DNA from: Acidobacteriota bacterium
GTDB lineage: Bacteria > Acidobacteriota > Terriglobia > Bryobacterales > Bryobacteraceae
Length of the DNA stretch: 38,141 nt
Assembly (NCBI GenBank): GCA_016871055.1
Contig: VFZW01000014.1
Location: 1 to 38,141 of the forward strand
Direction: 5' to 3'
Within the stretch, counting starts at the first letter, position 1. Every line of letters begins with the position of its first letter. Under the pieces are notes generated by a model, which saw only the letters and a program-made list of their open reading frames with translations, searched no databases and had not been told where the DNA came from. The translations under genes were made by a program, and so were the position numbers. Of this stretch, positions 8,415 to 10,722 are shown one piece after another.

Positions 8415-9158
8415 ATGTCTATCGGCACTTGGCGGGATTTCGAGAGATTGAGGGAGATCGGGCGCGTGGTGCGCCTGGTGCTCGATGGGGTGGCTTCGGC
8501 GGTTGGGCCGGGCGTTTCGACGCGCGATTTGGATGCAATCGGCGGGCGGCTGCTGGCTCTTGAAGGGGCGGAATCGGCTCCGCCCGCGGTTTACGGTTTC
8601 CCGGGGCAGCTTTGTATCAGCGTGAATGAGGAAGCGATTCACGGCATTCCGGGGAAGCGCGTGTTGCGGGATGGCGATCTGGTCAAGCTTGATTTGGTCG
8701 CGTCGAAGGACGGTTATTACGCCGACGCAGCTGTTACGGTGGAGGTGGGGCGCGGCACTGAACTCGGGAAGCGGCTGCGGCGCAGCGCTGAGGCGTCGTT
8801 TGCCGCGGGACTATCGGCGGCGAAACCGGGAAACAGGGCTTACGATATTGGGCGTGAGATCGACAAGCGGGTCCGCGCGGATGGCTTCCATGTTCTGCGC
8901 GACCTGTGCGGCCATGGCGTGGGGCGGACGATTCACGAGGAGCCGTCGATCCCGAACTTCAAGGACCCCAACTGCCGGGCGCGGTTGACCGAGGGGATGG
9001 TGATAACGATTGAGCCGATTCTGTCGGCCGGGACGCGCGAAGTGGTGAAGGAGAGGGATGGGTGGACGCTGCGGACGGGGGACCGGAGTTGGGCCGCGCA
9101 TTTTGAACATACGGTGGTGGTGATGGCGGGTGGACCGGTGTTGGTGACGGCGGCGTAG
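8415..9158 (+). CDS. map: Methionine aminopeptidase, type I
   Basis: A 247-residue pita-bread-fold metalloprotease that removes the initiator methionine from nascent proteins. All five metal ligands are visible: Asp in LVKLDLV, Asp in GYYADAAVTV, His in DLCGHGVGRTIHEEP, Glu in MVITIEP and Glu in AAHFEHTVVV. The length and start fit type I enzymes without an N-terminal extension. It is followed after only 8 nt by hicA, so an essential housekeeping gene and a toxin-antitoxin pair may share a transcript. The family assignment is secure; whether this is the only map gene in the genome is unknown. Confidence 0.95.
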   Translation: MSIGTWRDFERLREIGRVVRLVLDGVASAVGPGVSTRDLDAIGGRLLALEGAESAPPAVYGFPGQLCISVNEEAIHGIPGKRVLRDGDLVKLDLVASKDGYYADAAVTVEVGRGTELGKRLRRSAEASFAAGLSAAKPGNRAYDIGREIDKRVRADGFHVLRDLCGHGVGRTIHEEPSIPNFKDPNCRARLTEGMVITIEPILSAGTREVVKERDGWTLRTGDRSWAAHFEHTVVVMAGGPVLVTAA

Positions 9159-9166
9159 GGGGCGCG

Positions 9167-9343
9167 ATGGGGATGAAGGTTCGGGAAGCGATCAGAAAAA
9201 TAGAATCGGACGGGTGGCAATTAGCGCGTGTCCGAGGAAGCCATCGGCAGTATCACCATCCGATCAAACCAGGAACCGTTACCATCGCCGGACACCCCTC
9301 CGCCGATTTGGACCCCAAGACGGAGAGTTCTATACTGAAGTAG
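9167..9343 (+). CDS. hicA: HicA-type mRNA interferase toxin (below ORF-track cutoff)
   Basis: A 58-residue ORF absent from the track because of its size. It starts ATG at 9167 (a second in-frame ATG is at 9173) and ends with TAG at 9341-9343. The protein MKVREAIRKIESDGWQLARV followed by RGSHRQYHHP, then VTIAGHPSADL, has the dsRBD-like HicA fold, with the catalytic histidine in the GSHRQY motif. HicA toxins cleave mRNA and are neutralised by HicB, which follows 11 nt downstream. The order toxin-then-antitoxin is usual for hicAB. It starts 8 nt after map on the same strand. Assignment is from family pattern; toxicity is not shown. Confidence 0.85.
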   Translation: MGMKVREAIRKIESDGWQLARVRGSHRQYHHPIKPGTVTIAGHPSADLDPKTESSILK

Positions 9344-9354
9344 GCAGGTTTGAA

Positions 9355-9570
9355 ATGAGCAGGTACACGATCTTTATTCAACCCACAGCAACCGGTTTCA
9401 GCGCATACGTGCCGGATCTTCCGGGATGTGTTGCCGCCGCGTCCACGATTGACGAAACTCGCGAGCTGATGCGCGAGGCGATCGAGTTCCATCTAGAAGG
9501 CATGCAATTGCACGGCGAGGCGATTCCTGAGCCGACCGCGCTTGTTGAAGAGATCGAAGTGGGGGTTTAG
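9355..9570 (+). CDS. hicB: HicB-type antitoxin, short form
   Basis: The track ORF begins at 9214, but that would run through hicA; the ATG at 9355, 11 nt after the hicA stop, gives 71 residues. The sequence starts MSRYTIFIQPTATGFSAYVP and contains DLPGCVAAASTIDETRELMREAIEFHLEGM, the partially degraded RNase-H-like HicB fold (YxxxhPDLPGCxxxGxTxxEAxxxAxEAIxxhL). No ribbon-helix-helix or helix-turn-helix DNA-binding tail follows, so autoregulation by this short form would need another factor; this is inference. It is the expected partner of the HicA at 9167. Confidence 0.85.
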   Translation: MSRYTIFIQPTATGFSAYVPDLPGCVAAASTIDETRELMREAIEFHLEGMQLHGEAIPEPTALVEEIEVGV

Positions 9571-9634
9571 CGCTTGCTAAGTGACGACCGGCCGCAGCGC
9601 GGATTGCCCAGACGGTGTTGGGACGCCGTCGCGG

Positions 9635-10045
9635 CTATGACGCTGCGTCGTAAGTAGACAGGTAGATCTTGCTGTCATGGTGCACAAGACCCACGCGCAC
9701 ACGATCGAGCCAGCCGATCCTGCCAAGAACACTTTTCTCAATGAGTGGGTCGGCGAAAAAGTAGATTAGTGCGTGCGTCGCGATGCCAAGGGTAATGAGT
9801 TCGACTTCATGGCCGTAGGCCTCAAACCCACTGTTCGCCGTGCGGAAAAGCCTACGGATTCCGCTCGTCAGATCGAGGCCCAACTCCTCGGCAACTTCGG
9901 CGCTGAAGAGGCAAAATGACGCTCCCGTGTCGACGCTCGCGGCCATGTTGACTTGCCTAGTTCCCGACCGAAGCAGGACGGGGACCACAACCGTATCGGA
10001 CTGATCGGAGTAGTCGTAAACTCGGGCGAACGCGAGTTGGTGCAT
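9635..10045 (-). CDS. Retropepsin-like (clan AA) aspartic protease
   Basis: A 136-residue single-domain protein. The motif SVDTGASFCLFS (Asp39-Thr-Gly-Ala) is the retropepsin active-site triplet, and near the C-terminus SVLGRIGWLDRVRVGL matches the conserved hydrophobic-LGR helix segment of clan AA proteases. Such proteins work as homodimers with one Asp from each subunit. No signal peptide is seen, so it is probably cytoplasmic. It begins 3 nt after the stop of the AF2212/DUF5678-like gene, so translation is likely coupled. Its tight link to an antitoxin-like partner suggests a regulated protease; the substrate is unknown. A possible alternative is a non-proteolytic relative, but the DTGA motif is intact. 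Confidence 0.8.
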   Translation of the reverse strand: MHQLAFARVYDYSDQSDTVVVPVLLRSGTRQVNMAASVDTGASFCLFSAEVAEELGLDLTSGIRRLFRTANSGFEAYGHEVELITLGIATHALIYFFADPLIEKSVLGRIGWLDRVRVGLVHHDSKIYLSTYDAAS

Positions 10046-10048
10046 TGC

Positions 10049-10393
10049 CTACCAACCGCCAAATGGGGTGTCTTTGTCTTTTGGGACGCGGGCAAAGAAC
10101 GGCTGGGCGACTCCTGAAGACCGCGCCTCTTCGCTGACCGCCGCGAGTTTATTTCCGTGGGCGATCAGCTTCGAACCGTCGAGTGCGACCCACTGACCCG
10201 CGTAGGCCTCCGACTGTTCGGCAAGCCATCTCAGTTCTTCACTTCGCTCGTTGATTGGCTCGTTGGTTTCCCAGCTCAGTGGCGCTGGCGCTTCTTCCAG
10301 CGTCAATTGGACTCGTTGGTTTTCGGAAAGAAACAACGGCTCTAGAGGACGGAGGACTCCCTGTTCGAAGACGGCTTCAAGCTGACGCGCCAT
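10049..10393 (-). CDS. AF2212-like antitoxin domain fused to a DUF5678-like domain
   Basis: A 114-residue protein in two parts. Residues 1-35 (LEAVFEQGVLRPLEPLFLSE then NQRVQLTLEE) match the AF2212/DUF104 antitoxin pattern, a small beta-fold usually paired with PIN toxins. Residues about 62-105 (EAYAGQWVALDGSKLIAHGN then a helix and GVAQPFFARV) match DUF5678. A charged linker (INERSEELRWLAEQS) joins them. It sits between a DUF433 gene (33 nt upstream) and the aspartic protease (3 nt downstream). A TACAAT lies 9 nt before the ATG. The pairing suggests this is the partner or regulator of the protease rather than of a PIN nuclease; that role is inferred. Confidence 0.7.
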   Translation of the reverse strand: MARQLEAVFEQGVLRPLEPLFLSENQRVQLTLEEAPAPLSWETNEPINERSEELRWLAEQSEAYAGQWVALDGSKLIAHGNKLAAVSEEARSSGVAQPFFARVPKDKDTPFGGW

Positions 10394-10402
10394 GGCATCT
10401 TC

Positions 10403-10408
10403 ATTGTA
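10403..10408 (-). promoter_or_regulatory. Putative -10 box of the AF2212/DUF5678-like gene
   Basis: The minus strand reads TACAAT ending 9 nt before the ATG at 10393, within the 33-nt gap after the DUF433 gene. It could allow the AF2212/DUF5678-protease pair to be transcribed separately, with an almost leaderless message. Confidence 0.35.
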
Positions 10409-10425
10409 CAGATCCTCCGAGTCGG

Positions 10426-10722
10426 CTATGGGACGATAGGTCGCCCTGAAAGGCGAACACCCTCATCGTAGGCGCGGTCCTCCGCCTCCAGATCGGCGTC
10501 GATCTCGCCCTTGTTCGCGTGATAATAAGCGAGCGCCGCGTGAATCTGCGCAAGTGTCAGATAGGGCCGGTCCGCGGCGATTTCTTCAGGCAAGTATCCC
10601 TGATTGCTCGCAACCGAGATAGTCCTGACACACGTGCCCGTGCCGGCAATAATCGGCCGGCCTCCGCGCAGTTCGGGGTCGCGCGTGATCATCGTCCCGA
10701 TCTCACAATACGTGGCAGCCAT
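10426..10722 (-). CDS. DUF433-family (VapB45-like) antitoxin-like protein
   Basis: A 98-residue protein with the DUF433 signature: ITRDPELRGGRPIIAGTGTCV, then GYLPEEIAADRPYLTLAQIHAALAYYHANKGEID. DUF433 proteins are helical DNA-binding antitoxins that are normally followed by a DUF5615 PIN-like nuclease. No such nuclease is present here; the next gene downstream is the AF2212/DUF5678 fusion. The normally conserved TRI in the IAGTRIPV motif reads TGTCV here, so the sequence has drifted. The start could be the ATG at 10722 or the in-frame ATG ten residues later (MITRDPE). It lies 19 nt downstream of the M16 protease gene on the same strand, so it may be read through from there. Confidence 0.8.
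   Translation of the reverse strand: MAATYCEIGTMITRDPELRGGRPIIAGTGTCVRTISVASNQGYLPEEIAADRPYLTLAQIHAALAYYHANKGEIDADLEAEDRAYDEGVRLSGRPIVP

What the first reader, a model, noticed from the sequence alone, without database searches (positions are those of the whole stretch)
9635..10722. Three-gene DUF433 / AF2212-DUF5678 fusion / retropepsin-like protease module
Seen: three short minus-strand genes with gaps of 33 and 3 nt. The first resembles a DUF433 antitoxin, the second joins an AF2212-like antitoxin segment to a DUF5678-like segment, the third has an intact DTGA retropepsin motif. Known: DUF433 usually precedes a DUF5615 PIN-like nuclease and AF2212 proteins usually pair with PIN toxins; neither nuclease is here. 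Inference: the protease has taken the effector place in a toxin-antitoxin-like system, with the fusion protein as inhibitor, substrate or targeting factor. The neighbouring hicAB makes this stretch a small toxin-antitoxin cluster.
Basis: partly seen in the sequence, partly recalled or inferred. Interest (0 to 1): 0.65.

Follow-up and report, generated by a model that had tools for sequence, protein, structure and literature searches.

The report
Antitoxin-like gene paired with retropepsin-type protease
A soil-bacterium gene pair built like a toxin-antitoxin system, except that the place of the toxin is taken by a small protease of the HIV-protease type; close to a hundred related pairs in the same phylum show that the two genes belong together, but toxicity itself has not been tested.

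Summary
The unit, however, is two genes, not three: an antitoxin-like protein ending in DUF5678, followed at once by a single-domain retropepsin-like protease. About 94 different pairs were collected across Acidobacteriota, down to 38% identity. DUF5678 is constant; the part in front of it is exchanged (AF2212-like, RHH, RelB/Phd-like, AbrB-like, DUF433 or short helical domains, mostly antitoxin DNA-binding or dimerisation domains). Most paired DUF5678 proteins end in a conserved (P)FGGW-type tail. Two DUF5678 genes without the protease sit directly before a Doc/Fic gene and a PIN gene. The window's DUF433 is a leftover: in a near relative the same site holds DUF433-DUF5615, and homology stops at the DUF433 stop codon, after which the window has the DUF5678-protease pair and hicAB. 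Best explanation: a mobile type II toxin-antitoxin-like module whose toxin is an aspartic protease, held inactive by DUF5678 and its tail. Pairing, domain exchange and site replacement are shown; toxicity, inhibition and the role of the tail are inferred. No such system was found in the papers searched. Distribution outside Acidobacteriota could not be tested.

The parts
10049..10393 (-). Antitoxin-like partner gene, 114 aa: AF2212-like front (residues 1-34, 10292-10393), DUF5678 (residues 60-104, 10082-10216), C-terminal tail TPFGGW
   Evidence: Pfam; conserved directly upstream of the protease in relatives
10052..10066 (-). Conserved C-terminal tail PFGGW of the partner
   Evidence: [GA][GA][WF] within the last five residues of 82 of 108 paired and 5 of 15 unpaired DUF5678 proteins
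9635..10045 (-). Retropepsin-like aspartic protease gene, 136 aa; DTGA at 9920-9931, LGRIGWLDR at 9701-9727
   Evidence: Pfam PF13650/PF13975; invariant motifs; fold match to APRc 5c9f
10426..10722 (-). Orphan DUF433 antitoxin gene, left over from a DUF433-DUF5615 pair; not part of the module
   Evidence: Near relative G007 has DUF433-DUF5615 at the same site; homology ends at the DUF433 stop codon
9167..9343 (+). hicA toxin gene, neighbour, not part of the module
   Evidence: Pfam HicA_toxin E 3.5e-18
9355..9570 (+). hicB antitoxin gene, neighbour, not part of the module
   Evidence: Pfam HicB_lk_antitox E 2.5e-12

Best explanation
A mobile, self-contained two-gene module of type II toxin-antitoxin design. 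The first gene makes an antitoxin-like protein: its front domain (here AF2212-like, AbrB superfamily) dimerises and binds the module's own promoter; its DUF5678 domain binds the protease; its C-terminal PFGGW tail lies in the substrate cleft and blocks it. The second gene, translationally coupled, makes a retropepsin-like aspartic protease that acts as a homodimer. When the partner is lost (turnover, stress, perhaps infection), the freed protease cuts cellular proteins and stops growth. Shown: gene pairing and order, domain make-up, exchange of the front domain, conserved active site, conserved tail, presence/absence at a syntenic site. Inferred: complex formation, inhibition by the tail, autoregulation, toxicity, trigger.
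For: Pairing: nearly all protease loci and 39 of 60 DUF5678 genes; fixed order, gap -12 to +10 nt in 80 of 94. Partner and protease distances correlate, r 0.56, 0 of 1000 permutations as high; among paralogues within genomes r 0.50, 25 of 2000. Front domains are antitoxin domains (AF2212, RelB-like, Phd/YefM, FitA/ParD-type RHH, DUF433) and change at least 24 times on the protease tree, with supported sister proteases carrying different fronts. DUF5678 genes without protease precede Doc/Fic (L160) and a PIN gene (L162) by a 4-nt overlap. Patchy distribution (10 of 61 relatives, 21 of 297 in the phylum), tandem copies and up to about ten copies per genome. In the window the module occupies the place of a DUF5615 toxin gene. 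D[TS]G[ASTC] kept in 89 of 94 proteases.
Against: No toxicity or inhibition data. The read-through structure model has pTM 0.58, so no confident interface. The tail is absent from the distant short-DUF5678 group and from 26 of 108 paired proteins. Five full-length proteases lack a canonical DTG. The excess of broken proteases over broken partners is not significant. A link between tail and active-site state was not significant. Characterised bacterial retropepsins are specific processing enzymes.
Confidence: 0.6

Rival explanations
1. Regulatory protease pair without a toxin: the DUF5678 protein is a transcription-factor-like substrate. On a signal the protease cuts it (at the tail, or between front domain and DUF5678) and so changes expression of the module or of other genes, in the manner of ImmA/ImmR.
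For: The partner carries DNA-binding type front domains. The conserved tail has the hydrophobic and aromatic character that retropepsins cut or bind (general knowledge). Makarova et al. propose such a role for COG2856 Zn-proteases paired with Xre proteins.
Against: DUF5678 genes also stand in front of Doc/Fic and PIN genes, where no protease is present to cut them. The conserved piece is at the extreme C-terminus, where a cut would remove only a few residues. The linker between front domain and DUF5678 is the least conserved part.
Confidence: 0.2
2. Specific processing enzyme with a chaperone or targeting subunit: DUF5678 brings the protease to its substrate or activates it, and the pair performs a benign maturation or stress function.
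For: Characterised bacterial retropepsins are specific processing enzymes: RimB trims polyglutamate from ribosomal protein RpsF (PMC11957791); the nearest solved structure is Rickettsia APRc.
Against: Patchy distribution, many paralogues per genome and turnover at a site with other TA pairs do not fit a housekeeping processing enzyme; nor does the exchange of antitoxin-type front domains.
Confidence: 0.14
3. The three genes form one system in which DUF433, the fusion protein and the protease act together (the first reader's module).
For: Same strand, short gaps; one relative (L097) has DUF433 fused to DUF5678 and another (L056) has a DUF433 gene just upstream.
Against: DUF433 is absent from the closest relatives of the module and present in only about six of some hundred loci, at varying positions. 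At the same site in G007 it is paired with DUF5615, and homology ends at its stop codon.
Confidence: 0.04

Closest known systems
Type II toxin-antitoxin systems with exchangeable antitoxin DNA-binding domains (VapBC, RelBE, Phd-Doc, ParDE)
   Same: Small first gene with a DNA-binding or dimerisation front domain and a C-terminal effector-binding part, coupled to a small second gene; patchy, multi-copy, tandem, mobile
   Different: Second gene is an aspartic protease, not an RNase, kinase, Fic or gyrase toxin; DUF5678 is not an established antitoxin domain; toxicity is untested
DUF433-DUF5615 (COG2442-PIN) and AF2212-PIN (COG2880-PIN) pairs, Makarova et al. 2009 (PMC2701414)
   Same: The AF2212 front domain and the neighbouring DUF433 are antitoxins of these pairs; a DUF433-DUF5615 pair stood at this very site
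   Different: No PIN-like nuclease here; AF2212 is cut down to its first 34 of 59 positions and fused to DUF5678
COG2856 (ImmA/IrrE-like) Zn-protease with Xre partner
   Same: Protease paired with a DNA-binding protein in a TA-like arrangement
   Different: Metalloprotease, often fused to its partner; unrelated fold and partner
Bacterial retropepsins: RimB, APRc, COG3577/COG5550, TIGR02281/TIGR03698
   Same: Single-domain clan AA fold, DTG motif, late hydrophobic-Gly motif
   Different: Far below the TIGR02281/TIGR03698 cut-offs; near-obligate neighbour of DUF5678; no such partner is mentioned in the papers read

Membership tests
Clan AA retropepsin-like proteases (PF13650/PF13975) | Profile match above the curated cut-off | tested here: met
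   34.8 bits against 24.3 (PF13650), 31.7 against 28.2 (PF13975)
Clan AA retropepsin-like proteases (PF13650/PF13975) | Catalytic D-T/S-G and fold | tested here: met
   DTGA at residues 39-42, invariant in close homologues; best fold match APRc 5c9f, E 5e-6
Clan AA retropepsin-like proteases (PF13650/PF13975) | Active homodimer with proteolytic activity | not testable with these tools
   Only one chain can be modelled; no assay
Type II toxin-antitoxin system | Two small co-directional, overlapping or abutting genes conserved as a pair | tested here: met
Type II toxin-antitoxin system | First protein has a DNA-binding/dimerisation domain of antitoxin type | tested here: met
   AF2212-like here; RelB-like, Phd/YefM, RHH, DUF433 in relatives; DNA binding itself not tested
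Type II toxin-antitoxin system | Mobile, patchy, multi-copy distribution | tested here: met
   10 of 61 relatives, 21 of 297 in the phylum, tandem copies, site replacement
Type II toxin-antitoxin system | Second protein is toxic and is neutralised by the first through binding | not testable with these tools
   Needs expression and binding experiments; read-through model inconclusive
DUF433-DUF5615 pair | DUF433 followed by a DUF5615 PIN-like gene | tested here: not met
   Not in the window; present at the same site in G007
AF2212-PIN pair (COG2880) | AF2212 protein followed by a PIN gene | tested here: not met
   The next gene is a retropepsin
HicB-like antitoxins (considered for DUF5678) | Profile or fold similarity between DUF5678 and HicB | tested here: not met
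   hhalign probability 0.1 with four HicB rows, a weak test; no HicB among Foldseek matches of the partner model

The most novel reading that the evidence does not exclude
A new class of toxin-antitoxin (or abortive-infection) system in which the toxin is a retropepsin-like aspartic protease and DUF5678 is a dedicated protease-inhibitor domain that ends in a pseudo-substrate tail, fused to interchangeable antitoxin DNA-binding domains and spread through the Acidobacteriota in up to about ten copies per genome.
Probability: 0.5. Interest if true: 0.85.

Novelty: new variant of a known kind. Interest (0 to 1): 0.68.

Why it matters
If true, proteolysis by an HIV-protease-type enzyme would join the list of toxin activities in bacterial toxin-antitoxin systems, and DUF5678, for which the paper library holds only one unrelated mention, would gain a function as a natural binder or inhibitor of such enzymes. 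The conserved FGGW tail would be a natural peptide ligand to study. The claim can be tested directly with two small genes in laboratory E. coli.

Tried and rejected
(a) DUF433 as third member: rejected by synteny and by its absence in relatives; the recurrent DUF433 neighbours (about 6 of 100 loci) fit clustering of TA genes. (b) DUF5678 as a HicB-like fold: not supported. (c) Interface from a read-through model: domains good, relative placement not confident; in the partner alone the tail is disordered. (d) Tail linked to active-site state: p 0.08; H-E motif against tail p 0.63: inconclusive. (e) Protease decays more often than partner: 10 against 2, p 0.18 after allowing for target size: inconclusive. 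(f) Plasmids, phages, viral contigs: no relatives. (g) Papers: none joins retropepsin with antitoxin or toxin-antitoxin, and 'protease toxin' with toxin-antitoxin gave nothing relevant; the clan AA survey mentions no partner. (h) PADLOC: only weak matches, E 0.015 and 0.03. (i) Promoter/terminator scan: nothing above chance. (j) A cyanobacterial plasmid record, wanted as a way into another phylum, was not held.

Full report
WHAT IS THERE. The window is a contig of an Acidobacteriota genome (7.1 Mb, 713 contigs; nearest named relatives of the genes are Bryobacterales and Ca. Sulfopaludibacter MAGs). Minus strand: DUF433 gene 10426-10722, fusion gene 10049-10393, protease gene 9635-10045, with 32 and 3 nt between them. 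Pfam confirms DUF433 (E 6e-16), AF2212-like plus DUF5678 in one 114-aa protein, and Asp_protease_2 in the third. The protease has DTGA and the late LGRxGWLDR motif; 23 columns are invariant in 11 homologues. The protease half of the structural model matches Rickettsia APRc (5c9f, E 5e-6) and retroviral proteases.

THE UNIT IS TWO GENES. In relatives the fusion gene and the protease stay together down to 38-39% identity, while DUF433 is absent. A scan of 84,980 species genomes with the protease alignment gave 79 loci, all titled Acidobacteriota (Bryobacterales to Pyrinomonadaceae and Blastocatellia); all but five show a DUF5678 gene directly upstream on the same strand. Of the five, three begin at a contig edge, one is degraded, and one (L040) has a shortened protease without partner. 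The reverse census, a DUF5678 family search in 297 genomes of the phylum, gave 60 genes in 21 genomes (one further G000 pair, L019, among them); 39 have a retropepsin directly downstream, and several of the rest are contig edges, sub-threshold matches or a protease remnant. The set includes a second, more distant protease group paired with a short DUF5678 protein without the tail (L024, L026, L028, L110, L123). Gaps lie between -12 and +10 nt in 80 of 94 pairs (gap measured to the start of the profile match). Distances of partner and protease correlate (r 0.56; within genomes r 0.50).

THE PARTNER IS BUILT LIKE AN ANTITOXIN. DUF5678 is present in 77 of 77 partners scanned, but the front domain varies: AF2212-like (19 by Pfam, 22 by motif), RelB-like, Phd/YefM, FitA-like and ParD-like ribbon-helix-helix, AbrB-like (by eye only), DUF433, a short helical front (one weak DUF2281 match), or almost nothing. 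On the protease tree this label changes at least 24 times (least possible 6; shuffled mean 45), and well-supported branches force at least three changes for RHH, two for AbrB-like and two for RelB-like fronts (the 'helical' and 'other' labels are rough). So antitoxin-type front domains are exchanged ahead of a constant DUF5678. Two DUF5678 genes without a protease overlap by 4 nt with a Doc/Fic gene (L160; Fic E 2e-15) and a PIN gene (L162; E 1.6e-4, just under the cut-off). Most paired proteins end in (P)FGGW or a close variant: 82 of 108 paired against 5 of 15 unpaired (Fisher p 0.0016; sequences are related, so the p-value is rough).

LOCAL HISTORY. Relative G007 carries the same M16 peptidase and methionine aminopeptidase genes (98% identical proteins). 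Between them it has DUF433, then DUF5615 (PIN-like, E 2e-15) 3 nt later, then a HicB-like remnant. Alignment with the window runs through DUF433 to its stop codon (TAGC) and ends there; it resumes at the end of the aminopeptidase gene. In the window the space between holds the DUF5678-protease pair and hicAB. Thus the two strains hold different partners after the same DUF433 gene, and the simplest reading is that the window's DUF433 lost its DUF5615 partner and a different complete pair now stands in its place (direction of change is inferred; DUF433-DUF5615 is the usual pair also elsewhere in this genome). The closest relatives of the module lie on contigs other than that of the M16 gene, so the module moves independently of this site.

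MECHANISM. Shown: pairing, order, exchange of front domains, intact active site, conserved tail, a different partner at one syntenic site. Inferred: the front domain autoregulates, DUF5678 binds the protease, the tail fills its cleft (many type II antitoxins neutralise with a C-terminal segment: general knowledge), and free protease is harmful. The AlphaFold model of the in-frame read-through of both genes (TAG read as Gly) has pLDDT 88.7 but pTM 0.58; DUF5678 residues 61-100 score 94-97 there against 87-92 in the partner alone, and the block with the tail 65 against 44. This is at most a hint, since coordinates and error matrix were not available, alignments differed, and the protease dimer was not modelled. 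DUF5678 itself has no match among solved structures; only the AF2212 part matches 2nwt.

COMPARISON. Makarova et al. 2009 predict DUF433 (COG2442) and AF2212 (COG2880) as antitoxins of PIN toxins; the only protease in their list is the Zn-protease COG2856. Known bacterial retropepsins are processing enzymes (RimB, APRc). No paper in the library joins retropepsins with antitoxins, and DUF5678 is mentioned in a single unrelated paper. The library lacks most subscription journals, so this is not proof of absence.

LIMITS. Everything rests on genome comparison. Frameshifts in metagenome assemblies may blur gene integrity. Only Acidobacteriota were reachable. Function as a toxin is an inference.

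Noticed in passing
L160:1467-2209 (+) and L162:849-3052 (-): DUF5678 proteins of another build stand directly before a Doc/Fic gene and a PIN gene with a 4-nt overlap: DUF5678 as an antitoxin part for other toxins.
   Followed up: partly
L125:761-1680 (+): DUF433, DUF5615 and a short DUF5678 gene in a row, without protease.
   Followed up: partly
L109:1252-1830 (-), L148:1456-2076 (-): One ORF with two DUF5678 domains in a row, directly before the protease.
   Followed up: no
L115, L141, L149, L150, L163 proteases: Full-length paired proteases whose DTG is DCG, DTV, DPG, DPG, DRG: the Asp is kept, the rest of the motif is not. Possibly inactive members.
   Followed up: partly
L166 (G000:C48), L167 (G000:C2), L024, L110, L123: A second, more distant retropepsin group (DSG/DTG, LLGRxGFF) with a short upstream DUF5678 gene lacking front domain and GGW tail; two copies in the window's own genome.
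   Followed up: partly
window 9149-10425 against L170:2862-3384: The M16-aminopeptidase gap is a turnover site for TA-type genes: DUF5615 and a HicB-like remnant in G007, DUF5678-protease and hicAB in the window.
   Followed up: yes
G000:C301 (L137/L165): Two tandem DUF5678 genes at a contig end in the same genome; the protease may lie beyond the break.
   Followed up: no
L097:2506-3399 (+): A DUF433 domain fused directly to DUF5678, followed by the protease.
   Followed up: partly
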